In this document: in pieces, positions 787 through 54,432 of the stretch
Layout: every line of letters starts with the position of its first letter
How positions within the stretch are numbered: the first letter of the stretch is position 1
Origin: a virus
IMG/VR virus record: IMGVR_UViG_3300027712_000037
Span: 1-56,111 of that record
Reading direction: 5' to 3' (one strand)
Length of the DNA: 56,111 nt
Program-made: the position numbers and the translations under genes
Notes under the pieces: model-generated
Databases searched by the model: none
What the model saw: the letters and a program-made list of their open reading frames with translations, nothing else
What the model was told of the DNA's origin: nothing

Positions 787-1140
787 TTAGATTACCTTAT
801 CACCCATAGTATGGTCTAGCACAGGCTCGTCACTGACCATTAAAATGTCATTATTATCTATTTTGCGTATAGTATGCTCACCTGTACTATCTTCTATTGT
901 AATACCACGAGTCCACCGACCGTGACTAATTAGAATATATTGACCAACTTTAACATCTTTTTGTTCAGGCCCAATTGCATATACACGCCCCCAACGAGGT
1001 CTAATACCTGAGTTTTTCATATCATCATTGAGAATTATGATTCCTCCTGCACTAATACGCTCATCAAATGCCATGTCTGACACTATAACACTGTCATGCA
1101 ATGCCCGTAAATTATTGATCTTGTGTGCTTGTATTGTCAT
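787..1140 (-). CDS. 31: GroES/gp31-like co-chaperonin
   Basis: Predicted to form the lid that works with host GroEL to fold virion proteins, as T4 gp31 does for the capsid protein. The GroES pattern is visible: LRALHDSVIVSDM, the mobile-loop region ISAGGIIILNDD, then WGRVYAIGPEQKDVKVGQYI and a C-terminal strand NNDILMV. I chose ATG at 1138-1140 over the upstream TTG (1176) because AAGGAG lies 13 bases upstream; the TTG would lengthen the overlap with the preceding gene. The length (117 aa) suits gp31 (111 aa) and GroES (97 aa). The gene overlaps the 126-aa gene by 29 bases. Confidence 0.82.
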   Translation of the reverse strand: MTIQAHKINNLRALHDSVIVSDMAFDERISAGGIIILNDDMKNSGIRPRWGRVYAIGPEQKDVKVGQYILISHGRWTRGITIEDSTGEHTIRKIDNNDILMVSDEPVLDHTMGDKVI

Positions 1141-1492
1141 TTGTATTATTAATCTCCTTAGCTTTAATTTGTTCAACTTCTAAATCATCTTCGAACTCAG
1201 CGTCAAGTTCTTTTTCAAGTTCCGTTAATTCTTCTTTAACTATATCAGGTTTAACTTTGTTTCTTTCAATGGGCTCAGGAGGTCTCCTAACTATATTAGC
1301 TGAACGGTTACCTACAGTTTTTGAATAGTTGTCATTAACTCTATTAGTGACGGGTTTAATTACTTTTCCTGTAGAATCAATCGTGTCGCCACGAGCATTA
1401 ACTTTCATGTTACCAACGGCTCTTGCTTTTTCGTTTTTAGCAGCTAATACTCCCATATCTACCACTTTTCCCATTGCTGTTTTATATTTCAT
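1112..1492 (-). CDS. conserved charged phage protein, unknown function (126 aa)
   Basis: Starts MKYKTAMGKVVDMGVLAAKN behind a good AAGGAG site (1502-1507 region) and a late-promoter-like AATAAATA at 1514-1521. The N-terminal half carries VGNMKVNARGDTIDSTGKVI, a stretch I recall from other marine T4-like phages. The C-terminal half is very acidic and probably disordered (ELTELEKELDAEFEDD). No known domain. Its own late-type promoter suggests a virion or morphogenesis role, but that is inference. Confidence 0.75.
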   Translation of the reverse strand: MKYKTAMGKVVDMGVLAAKNEKARAVGNMKVNARGDTIDSTGKVIKPVTNRVNDNYSKTVGNRSANIVRRPPEPIERNKVKPDIVKEELTELEKELDAEFEDDLEVEQIKAKEINNTNDNTSTQDQ

Positions 1493-1513: not shown

Positions 1514-1521
1514 TATTTATT
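1514..1521 (-). promoter_or_regulatory. T4-type late promoter core AATAAATA
   Basis: AATAAATA on the minus strand, 21 bases before the start codon at 1492, overlapping the stop codon of the DnaE-like gene (1517-1519). One mismatch to the T4 consensus TATAAATA. A predicted start about 6 bases downstream leaves a short leader containing AAGGAG. Confidence 0.5.
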
Positions 1522-2023
1522 TTAAGAATTCGTCGATTGATAAATCGTAATATAATGAATTAATTCTATGGACACCTATCAAAAATAACACGAAACTGGC
1601 TACACTGCTTCCCCTGCCCACTCCCCATACTATATTATTTGCTCTCATAGTATCTACCAAATACTTAAGATAACGTAATAAATCAAACATTTCACGCTCT
1701 TGGAACAGTATTAATTCTTCACCAACTCGTTGTAATTCTGTGTTATTTTGACATAAATCTAGTACATATTTAGCAATATCAAAATTCTTATATTCTTCAG
1801 GCATTAACCAATTATTTTGCAAATTGCTATCAAATTCTTTTACGGTTAATTTAGGATCAGAATACAGTATAGTATTTGGTATATCAAATAATTCTAAGTT
1901 GTCTGAAAATTTTATAGGAGTTTCTACCCAAACTTCTTTTAATTTTCGTAAAGGATCTTTCAAATATAATCCACAGAGATCATCTTCTGTGTAAATTTGT
2001 TGCCCATACAAATCTGTTTTCAT
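1517..2023 (-). CDS. DnaE-like DNA polymerase III alpha fragment, front part
   Basis: Family C polymerase similarity is clear only in the last 60 residues: an aromatic/leucine-rich helix (MFDLLRYLKYLVDTMRANNI) leads into GVGRGSSVASFVL (residues 134-146), aligning with the GPGRGSAAGSLVAY motif of bacterial DnaE. Then YYDLSIDEFLK matches the DnaE segment just before the catalytic PDFDIDF motif. The protein stops there (168 aa). PHP, clamp-binding and OB regions are absent. The continuation is encoded separately at 49273-49893. I start at ATG 2021-2023; a GTG at 2041 is also open. I recall similar short ORFs annotated as Pol III alpha in other marine T4-like phages. Activity is unknown. Confidence 0.78.
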   Translation of the reverse strand: MKTDLYGQQIYTEDDLCGLYLKDPLRKLKEVWVETPIKFSDNLELFDIPNTILYSDPKLTVKEFDSNLQNNWLMPEEYKNFDIAKYVLDLCQNNTELQRVGEELILFQEREMFDLLRYLKYLVDTMRANNIVWGVGRGSSVASFVLFLIGVHRINSLYYDLSIDEFLK

Positions 2024-45675: not shown

Positions 45676-47079
45676 TTATTTCTTTAATCCGTTCAATATG
45701 CCCTTTAATCTAGATTCAGCAGTAGTTGCTATAACTCTTTTACTTTCAGGCTCTACTGTAGAATGTACAATGTCATTTACTGTAGATTGTGTTTTAATTT
45801 TATTAATAATATCGTTAGGAGTAGGAGCGGGTGGTCTATATGTATTAGCTTCAGGATCGGGGTCGGTAATTCGCAGTGTTTCTACATTAAACTCTAATTC
45901 GATTTTTTGACCTACGCCACTACTGCTTCTAGTTTTCATTAATTGCAATTGATATTGACCACGCTCACGCATACTGCGACTTGTAAAAATACCAAATACA
46001 TTATCTGCTGTATTAATTTTACTAATACCACCACTAATATGACTATGATCAAATTCAATTTCTTCAACCGCACTACGGTTCAATTGACTCGCCGTTACGA
46101 ACAATACATTTAATTCTTTTGCTAAGTTACGCAATTCTTCTGAGACATACTTGTCCTTAACAAACAAATCTGAAGGACTTACCTTTGCACTAACAGGCAT
46201 AAGCAAATCCAAATAATCTACACATAAAAAGTCTATTTTAACTCCTGTCTGTATTTGCAATTCTTTACAATATGCTCGCAAATCGTTAACTGTACTTTGT
46301 GCAGGCATATATTTGATGCGTAACTTGCCTGCCTTTTTGGCAAGCATTTTGATTTTCATTTCAACATTGTCAATATCTTTAAAGATATCTCGACTACTAG
46401 TATCAGTCATCATGCTATCTATACGCATACTACACAGACCTTCACTAAGTTCTAATGTAATATAAGCTCCATTCAACCCTGCTTGAGTCCAATTTACCGC
46501 AAGATTTTGCATGAATAAACTTTTACCAGAACCCGATCCCCCGGCGAAAATTTGCAATTCGCCCCTATTAAATCCTCCATAAAGTTTTTGATCCATGCTA
46601 GGCCAACCTGTACTATTCTGTCCATTATTACTTTTAAGCTGAGAAAGTCTAGCCCTAGGGTCAGCAAAATAATCTGTACCCATGTCTTTTTGTAAACTAA
46701 TTTGCACGGCATCTTTAATTAATTTTTCAACTGGACCAAAATCTCCCTTCTCTAACAAGTCAGCACTTTTAAGAATTGCTCTTTCTAGCTCTTGCCTTTT
46801 TGTGAATTTTTCAAATTCATCTAAAAACCAGTCATAATGCCCATCATCAAGTTCAGGAATAATATCTACAGATATTCCTGTAGATGCTTTGATTTGCGTA
46901 GGATCAGGCATTATATTATATTTTTTACTGTGCTCAACTAAAAAGTCTGCTACAGGTTTTAAATTGCGATCAAAATTACTAGAATTCATTATATTCATAA
47001 CTCTAGTATATAATTCTGCGTTAGTAACCATCATACGCAAAAACAATAATTGCATATCATTATTATATTCGTTGCTCAA
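45676..47079 (-). CDS. 41: replicative DNA helicase gp41 (DnaB family)
   Basis: Hexameric 5'-3' helicase that unwinds the fork and partners the primase. RecA-fold motifs: Walker A FAGGSGSGKSLFM (residues 178-190), AYITLELSEG, Walker B FLCVDYLDLL (Asp288), VTASQLNRSA and a final Arg-rich IFTSRSMRERGQY. Length 467 aa against 475 in T4. The start is TTG 47079 with AAGGAG five bases upstream. It overlaps gp61 by 17 bases, as expected for a primosome operon. Confidence 0.93.
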   Translation of the reverse strand: MSNEYNNDMQLLFLRMMVTNAELYTRVMNIMNSSNFDRNLKPVADFLVEHSKKYNIMPDPTQIKASTGISVDIIPELDDGHYDWFLDEFEKFTKRQELERAILKSADLLEKGDFGPVEKLIKDAVQISLQKDMGTDYFADPRARLSQLKSNNGQNSTGWPSMDQKLYGGFNRGELQIFAGGSGSGKSLFMQNLAVNWTQAGLNGAYITLELSEGLCSMRIDSMMTDTSSRDIFKDIDNVEMKIKMLAKKAGKLRIKYMPAQSTVNDLRAYCKELQIQTGVKIDFLCVDYLDLLMPVSAKVSPSDLFVKDKYVSEELRNLAKELNVLFVTASQLNRSAVEEIEFDHSHISGGISKINTADNVFGIFTSRSMRERGQYQLQLMKTRSSSGVGQKIELEFNVETLRITDPDPEANTYRPPAPTPNDIINKIKTQSTVNDIVHSTVEPESKRVIATTAESRLKGILNGLKK

Positions 47080-48034
47080 GTTTTCTCCTTTGAATTTCTA
47101 TTTTGACTCTATTACTAGTAGCACATTGTAAAATACTTAACAATGTAGGTAGTTTACCATATTTTACTACTGCATCATTAACATCTTTTACATCAGAATC
47201 CCATTTTGGAATACTAACACTATATCCCAACTCTAAAGCCCTATTACAAGTTTCTAATCCAGTTTTATCACGATCCGGAACAAAAATAATTCGTCTGTTT
47301 AATTGGCTTAATAGTTCTACCTGATCATCATTGATTGTGTTATGTGTCAACGCACAACAATTCAAACTCAATGCATCAAAAATACCTTCTACCAATATAC
47401 AAACTTCATACTCAGGCTTTTGAAAATCAATACCAAATACATAACCCGACTGTTGTTGATTTATATATTTAGGTGTTTTATTATCTAAGAAACGACTAGT
47501 GTAACCTACTACTTTATTTTCATAAGTATAGGGAATGATTATTCTATTGCCTTGCCGCCCCTTTGCATTTGGAGTAATTATGAATGGATAATCACTAACA
47601 TTTATGCCCCTAGATCGTACATAATCAACATATACTTTGTGTGAGGGATTTTTAGTATCAAGTATTTCACCCTCAGGTAAAGTTTCTTCTTTAAATTTAA
47701 TTTTTTTCTTAGATTTTTTGATCTGTATAAAATCTAATATATCTTTTTTCTGTAGACTTTCTAAGCTCCAACGCTGTATTTGAGACTCATCTATACCACA
47801 CCATTGTAAGAAATTTTTTGTATTTTTTGTAATACTTTTTCCTAAAGTGAACCCGCACTTGAACCCACAATTAAAGCAATGCATACTCCAGTTTGGTCCA
47901 TCGATTCGTAGACCAGCACGACCTCTTTTATCTGCTTTGTGTCCACGGTGATGACAACACACAGCATTGAATCCATGCCAACCGCTTTGTGTTAGTTTTT
48001 TCTTACCCGGAACTATAGTTAGTATTTCAAACAT
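47063..48034 (-). CDS. 61: DNA primase gp61
   Basis: Makes RNA primers with gp41. N-terminal zinc-binding region NAVCCHHRGHKADKRGRAG, MHCFNCGFKCGF (Cys26/27, Cys53, 56, 60). The TOPRIM domain follows: CILVEGIFDALSL (Glu216), FVPDRDKTGLETC (Asp254, Asp256) and DSDVKDVNDAV. Length 323 aa against 342 in T4 gp61. The ATG lies six bases from an extended -10 promoter TGCTATAAT and inside an inverted repeat (48032-48056), so the local transcript is predicted leaderless. Confidence 0.9.
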   Translation of the reverse strand: MFEILTIVPGKKKLTQSGWHGFNAVCCHHRGHKADKRGRAGLRIDGPNWSMHCFNCGFKCGFTLGKSITKNTKNFLQWCGIDESQIQRWSLESLQKKDILDFIQIKKSKKKIKFKEETLPEGEILDTKNPSHKVYVDYVRSRGINVSDYPFIITPNAKGRQGNRIIIPYTYENKVVGYTSRFLDNKTPKYINQQQSGYVFGIDFQKPEYEVCILVEGIFDALSLNCCALTHNTINDDQVELLSQLNRRIIFVPDRDKTGLETCNRALELGYSVSIPKWDSDVKDVNDAVVKYGKLPTLLSILQCATSNRVKIEIQRRKLEQRI

Positions 48035-48948: not shown

Positions 48949-49329
48949 ATGATTCAAAATGAATTTTTTAAAAAACTTAGCGAAACACATCCGTTTATAA
49001 CGGTATGTTCCTATGCCAATCAGGATTATGTAGGAATAATTCAGAATAAAGATGATAGCATTACTACTATATATGATTATGGATCAATAATAGATAGTAA
49101 TGTTAGAACTAGATTTTTAGAATTAGGGGATACATGGTGGTGGGAATCAAATAGATTGATTCCCATTAATTTATTCTTAAAAGAAGAATGGCTGCCTTTT
49201 AAACCTTATTTGAGGACCTTTACTAACAAAAGTTTAATAATATTGCACGGACCAGTATGCAGCATGAATGAATTACACAAGCGTAGAAGTAAGCGCAGAA
49301 GTATCACTCTTGTCAAAAGAATGCCTTGA
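48949..49329 (+). CDS. conserved phage protein, unknown function (126 aa)
   Basis: One of few plus-strand genes here. MIQNEFFKKLSETHPFITVC, then FLELGDTWWWESNRLIPINL and a basic C-terminus NELHKRRSKRRSITLVKRMP. I recall the GDTWWWESNRLIPI region from other phages, unassigned. It has no clear ribosome-binding site; a 6/8 late-like core TGTAAAAA lies at leaderless distance. It converges on the DnaE-like rear fragment, overlapping it by 57 bases. Confidence 0.65.
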   Translation: MIQNEFFKKLSETHPFITVCSYANQDYVGIIQNKDDSITTIYDYGSIIDSNVRTRFLELGDTWWWESNRLIPINLFLKEEWLPFKPYLRTFTNKSLIILHGPVCSMNELHKRRSKRRSITLVKRMP

Positions 49330-49893
49330 TTCTTCTAACAAGTTCATATGAACTCCAACTAGAGTAGCATAAGAAATTGCATGTGCTTTTTTAAACTGAT
49401 ATCCATCATCGGCTTTATCCCATACTGTTTTACTTATTTCTGACCAAAATTTACCAATTAAATGTTTTTTGGCAGGACGAATCAATGCTAAAAACATTGC
49501 TAGTCTAGGAATACTATTAACAGGCTCAGGCATTTTCTGCAATGATTGATAATGATTTCCTAGATGAATCAATTTTTCCACAAACTCTTTATTTTTTAAG
49601 TTATCCCAATTTGGATTACGCATTAATTCAACTAAATGTAGTTCATCCTTGACTTGATTATATACATGAACATTCAACAAATCTAACTTAAAATACCCGC
49701 GCTGTTCAGCATCTGAATAGTCAATAGCTGCCATATCATTAACAGGGTCATATGGAATTTGAGTGACATGTATACCTGTAGCATGTTTACGCTGTGGTTT
49801 AACTTTACGCATTGCGGCGGGGATATACTTAATATGTTGGAGAATCTTTTCTCTATCCCCAAAATCAATATCAACATCCGATTGAATTTTCAT
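49273..49893 (-). CDS. DnaE-like DNA polymerase III alpha fragment, rear part
   Basis: Continues where the 1517-2023 protein stops. SDVDIDFGDREKILQHI (residues 5-21) matches the DnaE catalytic PDFDIDF motif, with D6 and D8 at the positions of E. coli D401 and D403. KHATGIHVTQIPYDP matches the KHAGGVVIAP region. GYFKLDLLNVHVYNQV places D71 at E. coli D555. FLALIRPAKKHLI and YQFKKAHAISYATLVG match the later RPGP and FNKSHAAAYAL motifs. It is 206 aa with long deletions and no C-terminal domains. ATG 49893 overlaps the upstream stop (ATGA). Together the two pieces keep the palm residues. Confidence 0.8.
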   Translation of the reverse strand: MKIQSDVDIDFGDREKILQHIKYIPAAMRKVKPQRKHATGIHVTQIPYDPVNDMAAIDYSDAEQRGYFKLDLLNVHVYNQVKDELHLVELMRNPNWDNLKNKEFVEKLIHLGNHYQSLQKMPEPVNSIPRLAMFLALIRPAKKHLIGKFWSEISKTVWDKADDGYQFKKAHAISYATLVGVHMNLLEESRHSFDKSDTSALTSTLV

Positions 49894-50582
49894 TGATTGC
49901 TTTTCCAAATATTGTCAATATTTCTTACATCCTCAATTATATCATTGTCTAGATAATGAAGCAATAGAGCAGGTCTTGATTTGGGTAATGGATTAGGCAT
50001 ACTACTGTGTAAAACTCTACAATTATAAAATAGTACCGTGCCTTTTGGCATATTAGGTTGTATACTATGCTCTAAGAAAAAATCATTATATAATCCTTCG
50101 TAGCACAAATTAATATTAAAATCTTTTAATTGACTTTGAGGGACTAACCCTGTACTAGCAGAATTTTTATCGATATCGGTTAATGAAATAATACATTGTA
50201 TTCCCAATAGTCTTTTATCGTAATTGTATTTTTTAAATCTATGAGGTGTATCAATATGCGGGTTTAACCAAATACTTTCTTTTTCAATTACGACAATATC
50301 GCTAGAATAAAATTCCGCATTAGGTAAATAATTTTTAATTAATGGATTTAATAGTTTTTCTATTTCTAAAACTTCGGGCCAATTAATAACAGTTTGTGAC
50401 CACCAAACCGCTATGTCAGGTAAGTTTTTAATATCTTCTTTTTCAGCATATTGCATCGTGCTACTAGACGCACGAACTGGTGAAATTTCATCTAACCTAT
50501 TAACTACATTGTCAATTAATTCTTCTGAAATAAAATTTTTAGCTAAAATATAGCCGCTACCATCTATTAATTCATTATGCAT
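49890..50582 (-). CDS. 2-oxoglutarate/Fe(II) dioxygenase, phytanoyl-CoA hydroxylase-like
   Basis: A double-stranded beta-helix oxygenase. The iron ligands are visible as H109-x-D111 in WLNPHIDTPH and H192 in NCRVLHSSMPNPL, and R203 in SRPALLLHYL should bind 2-oxoglutarate. IISLTDIDKNSASTGLVPQS between them is typical of PhyH-type enzymes. Its substrate is unknown; phage 2OG oxygenases have been linked to DNA or protein modification and to metabolism. Overlaps the DnaE-like rear fragment by four bases. Confidence 0.8.
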   Translation of the reverse strand: MHNELIDGSGYILAKNFISEELIDNVVNRLDEISPVRASSSTMQYAEKEDIKNLPDIAVWWSQTVINWPEVLEIEKLLNPLIKNYLPNAEFYSSDIVVIEKESIWLNPHIDTPHRFKKYNYDKRLLGIQCIISLTDIDKNSASTGLVPQSQLKDFNINLCYEGLYNDFFLEHSIQPNMPKGTVLFYNCRVLHSSMPNPLPKSRPALLLHYLDNDIIEDVRNIDNIWKSNQ

Positions 50583-52416: not shown

Positions 52417-54432
52417 TCAAAAGGTTTTTGTAAGTTTGAATCCTACAGCCATGTCATTTTGACCCAGTTGACCACGATAATTCTGCCGAGCCTCTACAAA
52501 TGCCATAGTGTTAAACTCCTTAGAGTTTTGAAACTTATGATAAACACCTGTTCTAAGTTCATGTACATCTGCGGCTAGGTTAACACTACTATTCTGAATG
52601 ATATTGAATGAACTATCCAATCCAACAGGGGCGACCAAATCAGCATTAGCACGGTAGACACTAACAGGTTGATATACCATAACACCAACAGTGTTGTTGA
52701 TATTTAGTTTTTGCTCAAGACCTGCGGTCCATGCGTAACTTAGGACACTTCCGATTTTCTGAATGTTTTCACTGTGCGAGTTGGTCTTTGTGATACCATG
52801 GATAAAATTAGCATACAGGTTAGTACCAGTGTCAAATGCTTTGTTCATCTCAACACCAGCAAACTGTGTAGTGCTGTTATTGTTTTTACCATCACCTACA
52901 AAACTACCTACACTATTACCCAACCAGGTGTTAGTTTCGTTAAAGAATCCACCTGAAAACTTAACACTAGTATCACCAAATTGTTTAGTGTAAGCCAGTT
53001 CCAACATCATAGGTGATGTTTCTAAAAAGTTTGTGGTGTCACGGTAAATGCTCATCTCATATGAGCCTACTTGTACATTGGTTCGGTCATAGTATGTATT
53101 GAACAATGTATAAGGGTTGTGTGACTCATAGGGCATCATTGCCTGATGAGGATTGAAAGGATCGTCTTTCTTGTGTGCGGTAAACGATTTTCCATTGAGA
53201 TAGAAATCACGCTCAAAACTATCCACTACCATGATGCCACTTAGTTTACCTGTGCTAGCACTACCAGTCGCCGTATAGACAAGTGGTCGTGCGCTAGCAA
53301 GAGTAGTGCCAGCCAATCGACCTGTAGTTGGAATACCAACTGAACCAACTGGGCTAGTTGCTTTATCAAGATCCATTAGACCTTGACCCATAGTGTATAG
53401 ACTGTAGCCAGGCAGATTCTTGTTAGCAGTAACAAGCAACAACCTTACAATGTTAGCACCTGTCATCTGTGGCCACATCTGATGAATTAGTGCGGCGCCA
53501 CCTGAAACAGCGGGTGCTGCCATAGATGTACCGGACATTGTAACCAATCCAGTTGGATTGATAGGAGTCTTAAGTCCAGTGCTAATAATGCTAGTACCGG
53601 GAGCCATTAGAAAAAAGTCATATGCCTTGTACTTATCTTGGCAAACTGAATTCACCATAACTTGGCATAGATGCGCCGCGCCATTGGTTGATGGCCCAAC
53701 TGTTTTGTTGGTAACACTGTTCCAATTGCCTGCAATAATCATTCGACCACCCAACAACAAATTACCATTTGCGTCAGTAGCAGTAGCCAATTGAGTAATA
53801 CTATTAGACCATGCTGTAGCCTCATTACCTGCGGCTACAACCATTACCATTTCACCTTTAGTAGCACTAGCCCATACCTTAGCATCAAAGTCATAGGGCA
53901 ATTTGCCAGTGTTAGTATAAGATGTTTTATAGATACCCGGGGCAATCAATACAGGGGTAATTGTGTTACGGCTAATAGGGAATGTAACGCTCATATTAGC
54001 AACATCAGCGCCTAAAGTTGCTGCCCAATTAGCGGCAGTAAGAACTGTTGATGTGTTCATAGCACCATTATCAGTAATTTTGCCAATAATCAAACTAGCA
54101 TCATACGCAACACCTTGAACACCTACACCATTTTTTGCTGCTGCTGCAATGCCAGCAACATGAGTACCATGACCAACGCGGTCAACTATAGTTTTACTAT
54201 TAGTAAAATCTTTAATAGCTAGGATTTTATTTTTAAACTCATCATTACTAGTATCGATACCGGTATCTAAAATAGCAATTACACTACCTTTACCTGTATA
54301 TCCACGTGCATATGCTCCACTGGCATTAATTAAAGGTAAAGTACGACTAAGAGAATATTCTGTAGTGGTTTGGGAGTAGGATAAACTAGAACAAGCCAGT
54401 GCTACACTTGCAACCAACATTTTAAATTTCAT
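52417..54432 (-). CDS. secreted subtilisin-like (S8) protease with C-terminal beta-barrel-like domain (671 aa)
   Basis: A signal peptide is plain: MKFKMLVASVALACSSLSYS, cleavage near residues 20-21. Catalytic triad: Asp56 in AILDTGID, His88 in GHGTHVAGIAA, Ser303 in SGTSMAAPAVSGG, with oxyanion Asn203 in VAAGNEA. After residue 390 the sequence becomes alternating beta strands with aromatics and ends MAVGFKLTKTF; a terminal Phe is usual in outer-membrane barrels, so an autotransporter layout is likely. It lies among FxLRW genes. In a phage this is unexpected; it may act on host surface or competitors, or came from a host. Start follows AAGGGTG. Confidence 0.85.
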   Translation of the reverse strand: MKFKMLVASVALACSSLSYSQTTTEYSLSRTLPLINASGAYARGYTGKGSVIAILDTGIDTSNDEFKNKILAIKDFTNSKTIVDRVGHGTHVAGIAAAAKNGVGVQGVAYDASLIIGKITDNGAMNTSTVLTAANWAATLGADVANMSVTFPISRNTITPVLIAPGIYKTSYTNTGKLPYDFDAKVWASATKGEMVMVVAAGNEATAWSNSITQLATATDANGNLLLGGRMIIAGNWNSVTNKTVGPSTNGAAHLCQVMVNSVCQDKYKAYDFFLMAPGTSIISTGLKTPINPTGLVTMSGTSMAAPAVSGGAALIHQMWPQMTGANIVRLLLVTANKNLPGYSLYTMGQGLMDLDKATSPVGSVGIPTTGRLAGTTLASARPLVYTATGSASTGKLSGIMVVDSFERDFYLNGKSFTAHKKDDPFNPHQAMMPYESHNPYTLFNTYYDRTNVQVGSYEMSIYRDTTNFLETSPMMLELAYTKQFGDTSVKFSGGFFNETNTWLGNSVGSFVGDGKNNNSTTQFAGVEMNKAFDTGTNLYANFIHGITKTNSHSENIQKIGSVLSYAWTAGLEQKLNINNTVGVMVYQPVSVYRANADLVAPVGLDSSFNIIQNSSVNLAADVHELRTGVYHKFQNSKEFNTMAFVEARQNYRGQLGQNDMAVGFKLTKTF

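What the first reader, a model, noticed from the sequence alone, without database searches (positions are those of the whole stretch)
49273..49893. Rear half of a split DnaE-like polymerase keeps all three catalytic aspartates
The protein begins almost exactly at the DnaE catalytic motif (SDVDIDF for PDFDIDF) and shows D6, D8 and D71 at the positions of E. coli D401, D403 and D555, plus the KHAxG, RPxxx and FxKxHAxxYA motifs. It lacks everything before this point. The missing GRGS-containing part is a separate gene at the other end of the window. A family C polymerase cut at its palm, in a phage type that normally uses a family B gp43, suggests either a two-subunit mini-polymerase or nucleotidyltransferase, or a repurposed factor acting on the host replisome.
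Basis: partly seen in the sequence, partly recalled or inferred. Interest (0 to 1): 0.87.

Follow-up and report, generated by a model that had tools for sequence, protein, structure and literature searches.

The report
Split two-gene mini bacterial DNA polymerase
This phage fragment carries, as two separate small genes about 47 kb apart, the two halves of a stripped-down bacterial-type (Pol III/DnaE) DNA polymerase active site with every catalytic residue kept; the arrangement is real and odd, but it was already reported for large phages in 2021 and nobody is known to have tested it.

Summary
Window 49273-49893 (-) encodes a 206-aa protein homologous to the DnaE region from the catalytic PDxDxDF motif to the FxKxHAxxYA motif. 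D6, D8 and D71 correspond to E. coli D401, D403 and D555, and K69, R139 and H171 to K553, R639 and H760. The GRGS half is a separate 168-aa gene at 1517-2023 (-). It aligns to DnaE 317-392 and ends 8 residues before D401. Profile-profile comparison gives 97% probability for each half (reversed controls: nothing). Confident AlphaFold2 models (pLDDT 95 and 93) match mainly DnaE, at modest scores. Across 180 non-redundant C-halves and 125 N-halves all catalytic and GRGS residues are invariant. None of 264 + 169 ORFs is fused. Both halves occur together in every complete genome checked, always with a family B gp43, and the C-half gene sits beside primase and DnaB. Iyer et al. 2021 (PMC7824862) already described this split minimal Pol III alpha in 'group 2.2' jumbo phages, so this is a further member. 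New here: invariance statistics, models, metagenomic spread, a 141-kb carrier, conserved neighbourhoods. Most likely it is a two-subunit, low-processivity polymerase for short synthesis (primer extension or gap filling) beside gp43. Activity and partnership remain untested.

The parts
49273..49893 (-). DnaE C-half (206 aa): rest of palm with the catalytic aspartates and a shrunken fingers region; thumb missing
   Evidence: phrog_11778 E=1.5e-54; hhalign to DnaE 97.4%; AF2 pLDDT 95.1; Foldseek top 10 all DnaE
49870..49878 (-). codons of D6-V7-D8 (= E. coli D401, D403)
   Evidence: translation; D6 and D8 invariant 180/180
49681..49683 (-). codon of D71 (= E. coli D555)
   Evidence: hhalign; invariant 180/180
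1517..2023 (-). DnaE N-half (168 aa): first part of palm with GRGS; residues 1-91 phage-specific in place of PHP
   Evidence: PF07733 above cut-off; phrog_11127 E=2.6e-41; hhalign 97.7% to DnaE 317-392; AF2 pLDDT 92.9; Foldseek top 12 all DnaE
1607..1618 (-). GRGS motif (residues 136-139 = E. coli 361-364)
   Evidence: only GRGS in six-frame translation of the window; invariant 125/125
48949..49329 (+). convergent 126-aa ORF (phrog_11637) overlapping the 3' end of the C-half gene by 57 nt; conserved neighbour of unknown function
   Evidence: found next to the C-half in 241 of 262 loci, always on the opposite strand
47063..48034 (-). DnaG-type primase (T4 gp61-like), conserved neighbour of the C-half gene
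   Evidence: phrog_47 E=1e-37; Toprim_2; in 218 of 262 C-half loci
45676..47079 (-). DnaB-like replicative helicase (T4 gp41-like), conserved neighbour
   Evidence: phrog_19 E=1.6e-71; in 107 of 262 C-half loci, many of which end before it
787..1176 (-). GroES-like co-chaperonin by sequence reading, conserved neighbour of the N-half gene (not confirmed by a family search)
   Evidence: translation; homologue in 161 of 167 N-half loci

Best explanation
The 206-aa and 168-aa proteins are the two subunits of one minimal family C (DnaE/Pol III alpha-like) DNA polymerase. The N-half supplies the GRGS loop, which in DnaE contacts the incoming nucleotide. The C-half supplies the three metal-binding aspartates, the catalytic-site lysine and a reduced fingers region. 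They meet at the same loop where DnaE has its FL-NPERVSM-PDFDVDF linker, so the break falls inside the palm and only the assembled pair has a complete active site. PHP, thumb, clamp-binding and OB/tau regions are absent, so the enzyme should be distributive or depend on other replisome proteins. The most likely job is short synthesis beside the family B gp43, such as extending primase primers or filling gaps. Shown: homology, residue mapping, invariance, co-occurrence, absence of fusion, confident folds. Inferred: that the halves bind each other, that the complex polymerises, and the priming or gap-filling role.
For: D6/D8/D71/K69/R139/H171 invariant in all non-redundant C-halves, and GRGS in 125/125 N-halves, down to 29% and 24% identity to the window copy. 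hhalign 97.4% and 97.7%, reversed controls null. All 9 PDB sequence hits of the C profile are DnaE, with motifs collinear, though each is weak alone. Foldseek: first 10 (C) and first 12 (N) hits all DnaE chains, although no E-value is below 0.001. The N-half ends 8 residues before D401; the C-half starts 5 residues before its equivalent. 264 C- and 169 N-ORFs, none fused. 58 of 60 listed phage records with the C-half also list the N-half; of the two others, Slicko01 has it by PF07733 and the 109-kb PP728206 was not followed up. Strong purifying selection: dN/dS about 0.1 for near pairs. Conserved order with primase and DnaB helicase. gp43 present in all 8 complete or near-complete genomes tested.
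Against: No biochemical data are known for any member. No two-chain model could be computed. The thumb, which grips DNA in DnaE, is missing, and a polymerase without it is unusual. The genes lie in different gene groups, mostly 35-52 kb apart and 119 kb in one contig. gp43 already provides a replicase, so a second polymerase is not obviously needed. Foldseek TM-scores are modest (at most 0.48 of the query).
Confidence: 0.7

Rival explanations
1. A template-independent or specialised nucleotidyltransferase: the pair keeps the Pol beta-type catalytic core but, lacking thumb and most fingers, adds nucleotides to a primer, an end, a protein or an RNA rather than copying template.
For: Catalytic residues are kept, but the thumb and about three quarters of the stretch between the RP and FxKxHA motifs are lost (R139-H171 32 residues versus R639-H760 121 in E. 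coli).
Against: The fingers residues associated with nucleotide and template handling in DnaE (RP, FKKxHAxxYA) are about as invariant as the aspartates. The gene neighbourhood is primase and helicase.
Confidence: 0.13
2. A non-catalytic or regulatory remnant: each half acts separately, for instance as a replisome adaptor or an inhibitor of the host Pol III that mimics part of DnaE.
For: The halves are encoded far apart; each folds confidently on its own; gp43 is present as the replicase.
Against: Strict invariance of all metal- and nucleotide-binding residues in both halves and near-perfect co-occurrence are not expected of a decoy or remnant. No PHP, clamp-binding or tau-binding part is present to contact the host replisome.
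Confidence: 0.12
3. Trans-splicing: the halves are joined into one chain by a split intein, as in cyanobacterial DnaE.
For: Precedent of split DnaE genes in cyanobacteria (established knowledge).
Against: No intein-sized extension on either protein: the N-half ends at the DnaE-homologous FLK and the C-half starts 5 residues before the catalytic Asp. ORF lengths are uniform across homologues (mostly 180-209 aa and 160-179 aa).
Confidence: 0.01
4. Assembly error or frameshift breaking an ordinary DnaE gene.
For: None found.
Against: The halves lie about 47 kb apart, and are likewise separate in hundreds of independent contigs and in isolated complete phages.
Confidence: 0.002

Closest known systems
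Split minimal DNA polymerase III alpha of 'group 2.2' jumbo phages (Iyer et al. 2021, PMC7824862); PHROG 11778 (C) and 11127 (N)
   Different: Nothing essential. The window is a 56-kb fragment whose own gp43 is not in view; one carrier found here (Slicko01, 141 kb) is below jumbo size.
Bacterial DnaE / Pol III alpha (E. coli DnaE, PDB 2HNH, 5FKV; Taq 2HPI, 4IQJ; M. tuberculosis 7PU7)
   Same: GRGS loop, three catalytic Asp, active-site Lys, HxxG, RP and FxKxHAxxYA motifs in the same order and aligned by profile.
   Different: One chain of about 1160 aa with PHP, thumb, full fingers, clamp-binding and OB domains; here two chains of 168 and 206 aa without these.
Single-chain phage mini-DnaE without PHP (e.g. 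570-aa ORF in contig G007, 574-aa ORF in LR756508)
   Same: Reduced DnaE core, no PHP domain.
   Different: Unsplit; keeps more residues between PDxDxDF and HCGG; occurs in G007 in addition to the split pair and gp43.
Cyanobacterial split-intein DnaE
   Same: DnaE encoded by two separate genes.
   Different: There the break is elsewhere and repaired by protein trans-splicing (established knowledge); here no intein sequence exists and the break is right next to the catalytic Asp.

Membership tests
Split minimal Pol III alpha of large T4-like phages (Iyer 2021) | N (GRGS) and C (Asp triad) parts on separate, distant genes | tested here: met
   1517-2023 and 49273-49893; none of 433 homologous ORFs fused
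Split minimal Pol III alpha of large T4-like phages (Iyer 2021) | Belongs to the same sequence families as the named phages | tested here: met
   phrog_11778 and phrog_11127; 47-49% identity to the Atu_ph07, Phosso and PA5oct C-halves; Atu_ph07 is named in group 2.2
Split minimal Pol III alpha of large T4-like phages (Iyer 2021) | Accompanied by a family B DNA polymerase | tested here: inconclusive
   Not in the 56-kb window; present in 8/8 complete or near-complete relatives and in 9/14 large contigs, the other 5 ending before the expected place
Split minimal Pol III alpha of large T4-like phages (Iyer 2021) | Genome larger than 200 kb | not testable with these tools
   Window is the whole 56-kb record, likely a fragment
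Family C DNA polymerase (DnaE) | Three catalytic aspartates and GRGS loop | tested here: met
Family C DNA polymerase (DnaE) | HxxG, KxD, RP and FxKxHAxxYA motifs in order | tested here: met
Family C DNA polymerase (DnaE) | PHP domain | tested here: not met
   Residues 1-91 of the N-half have no DnaE or PHP match
Family C DNA polymerase (DnaE) | Thumb between D403 and HAGG | tested here: not met
   29 residues against 108 in E. coli
Family C DNA polymerase (DnaE) | Clamp-binding, OB and tau-binding C-terminal part | tested here: not met
   Protein ends 30 residues after the FKKAHAISYA motif
Family C DNA polymerase (DnaE) | Template-directed DNA synthesis | not testable with these tools
   Needs biochemistry
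Split-intein DnaE | Intein N- and C-fragments at the break | tested here: not met
   No extra sequence at either end

The most novel reading that the evidence does not exclude
A phage replisome runs two unrelated replicase families at once: a two-subunit mini Pol III with a composite active site extends primers or fills gaps and hands over to the family B gp43, a viral parallel of B. subtilis DnaE-to-PolC or eukaryotic Pol alpha-to-delta hand-off, with an exceptionally small family C catalytic core.
Probability: 0.3. Interest if true: 0.75.

Novelty: new member of a known kind. Interest (0 to 1): 0.42.

Why it matters
If the pair is active, it would be an exceptionally small family C polymerase core whose active site is built from two separately encoded chains. 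It would give a simple system for asking which parts of DnaE are essential for catalysis, and why large T4-like phages keep a bacterial-type polymerase besides their own. It also bears on whether the full Pol III grew from a small core (as Iyer et al. propose) or this is a reduced form. The paper search found no experiment on any member.

Tried and rejected
Single-sequence searches of the C-half against Pfam and PDB gave nothing (only chance hits), so DnaE kinship rests on profiles and folds. Split intein: rejected (no intein sequence). Fused versions: none in 433 ORFs; a long N-type ORF in L286 is an open upstream frame, and no ORF matches both models. A weak second PF07733 hit in the Vibrio phage (618-aa frame) reads like a tail-spike-type protein, a chance match. 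A weak one in GAP32 contains two stops and was dropped. Absence of gp43 in 5 of 14 contigs was checked: the contigs end before the place where it lies in the others (roughly 14-43 kb past the N-half), so it is not evidence of loss. Tree congruence or residue coevolution between the halves was not run: too few paired genomes. The bacterial and archaeal genome hits are in metagenome-assembled bins and are probably phage contigs binned with them; not followed up.

Full report
Observation. The gene at 49273-49893 is on the minus strand and encodes 206 aa, starting MKIQSDVDIDF. Its ATG overlaps the stop of the upstream gene (ATGA), supporting this start over the TTG five codons earlier. By itself it has no Pfam match and only chance PDB sequence matches, but it belongs to PHROG 11778 'DNA polymerase' at E=1.5e-54. 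The only GRGS in the six-frame translation lies in a second ORF at 1517-2023 (-), 168 aa, which matches PF07733 (Pol III alpha) above its cut-off and PHROG 11127.

Homology. I gathered relatives from IMG/VR, isolated phages and genome bins and built alignments A6 (89 C-halves) and A7 (97 N-halves). Against an alignment of E. coli DnaE with phage and plasmid DnaEs, hhalign gives 97.4% (E=1e-11) for the C-half and 97.7% (E=1.8e-12) for the N-half; the reversed DnaE alignment gives nothing. The C-half maps H37-H511, K69-K553, D71-D555 and R139-R639, and in a second, weak but collinear segment its FKKAHA motif onto FNKSHS around H760. The DVD at 6-8 corresponds to D401-D403 by motif and by the profile matches to solved DnaEs, although this short motif scores weakly alone. 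All nine PDB hits of the C profile are DnaE. The N-half covers DnaE 317-392 and stops 8 residues before D401. Together the halves tile the DnaE palm around one loop.

What is missing. D8 to H37 is 29 residues against 108 in E. coli, so the thumb is gone. R139 to H171 is 32 against 121, so most of the fingers is gone. The protein ends about 30 residues after the FKKAHAISYA motif, so clamp-binding and OB parts are gone. The first 91 residues of the N-half match no DnaE or PHP sequence.

Structure. AlphaFold2 models are confident: C-half mean pLDDT 95.1, N-half 92.9. Foldseek against PDB ranks DnaE chains first for both: the first 10 hits of the C-half and the first 12 of the N-half (3.2-3.3 A over about 104 columns for the M. 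tuberculosis enzyme). E-values are only 0.004-0.05 at best and TM-scores modest, so this supports rather than proves.

Conservation. At under 90% identity, D6, D8, D10, H37, G40, K69, D71, W96, R139 and K142 are identical in 180/180 C-halves and H171 in 179/179; GRGS, R99 and E103 are identical in 125/125 N-halves. Pairwise dN/dS is about 0.1 for near relatives. None of 264 C-type and 169 N-type ORFs is fused.

Distribution and context. Of 60 listed phage records with the C-half, 58 are in the listed N-half set. Slicko01 has an N-half by PF07733 and the 109-kb PP728206 was not followed up. Eight complete or near-complete genomes (PA5oct, Phosso, Atu_ph07, Slicko01, 121Q, SCTP-2, GAP32, Vibrio 2.275.O) all carry N-half, C-half and a family B polymerase. 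Among 14 large IMG/VR contigs, 13 have C, 12 have N and 9 have gp43; the gaps in N and gp43 fall where the contig ends. The distance from C to N is typically 35-52 kb, 119 kb in one, 47 kb here. The C-half gene sits in a conserved order: C-half, a convergent overlapping small ORF (241/262 loci, always opposite strand), a virion-type gene, primase (218/262), DnaB helicase. The N-half gene sits with a GroES-like gene (161/167).

Mechanism. Strict invariance of residues that in DnaE contact metal, nucleotide and template, spread over two proteins that occur together, is best explained by one composite active site. Without thumb and clamp-binding parts it should make only short stretches alone. 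The primase/helicase neighbourhood and the presence of gp43 point to primer extension or gap filling. This last step is inference.

Prior work. Iyer, Aravind and colleagues (Viruses 2021, PMC7824862; [quoted passage not shown] The searches found no later experimental work, but only open-access full text was searched. The window is therefore a further member of a described kind; interest is moderate because the central question, whether the pair is a working polymerase, is open and testable.

Noticed in passing
L454:4857-6566 (contig G007, 54856-56565): A third polymerase: a single-chain 570-aa DnaE-like ORF (TRGSAGSS ... DLPDIDLDF) about 1.6 kb from gp43, in a contig that also holds both split halves.
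   Followed up: partly
records W03, W04, G009, G014: The family B polymerase gene itself appears as two open frames (about 577 + 420 aa, or 578 + 322 aa) in several relatives, and is interrupted by a gap of about 2.5 kb in PA5oct (W01).
   Followed up: no
L005 (Alishewanella phage Slicko01, 141 kb): Both halves plus gp43 in a genome well below jumbo size, so the split polymerase is not confined to jumbo phages.
   Followed up: partly
window 48949-49329 (+): Small ORF of phrog_11637 convergent with and overlapping the DnaE C-half gene; the arrangement is conserved in 241 of 262 loci, function unknown.
   Followed up: partly
window 52417-54432 (-): 671-aa secreted subtilisin-like serine protease, with what reads like a signal peptide and an autotransporter-like C-terminal half, unusual cargo for a phage (phrog_3677 protease).
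   Followed up: no
window 49890-50582 (-): PhyH-type (phytanoyl-CoA dioxygenase-like) oxygenase, its stop overlapping the start of the DnaE C-half gene; found in only 25 of 262 related loci.
   Followed up: partly
plasmid hits H156-H159: dnaE genes of enterobacterial and Acinetobacter plasmids interrupted by NUMOD4/HNH homing endonuclease genes: a different kind of split DnaE.
   Followed up: no
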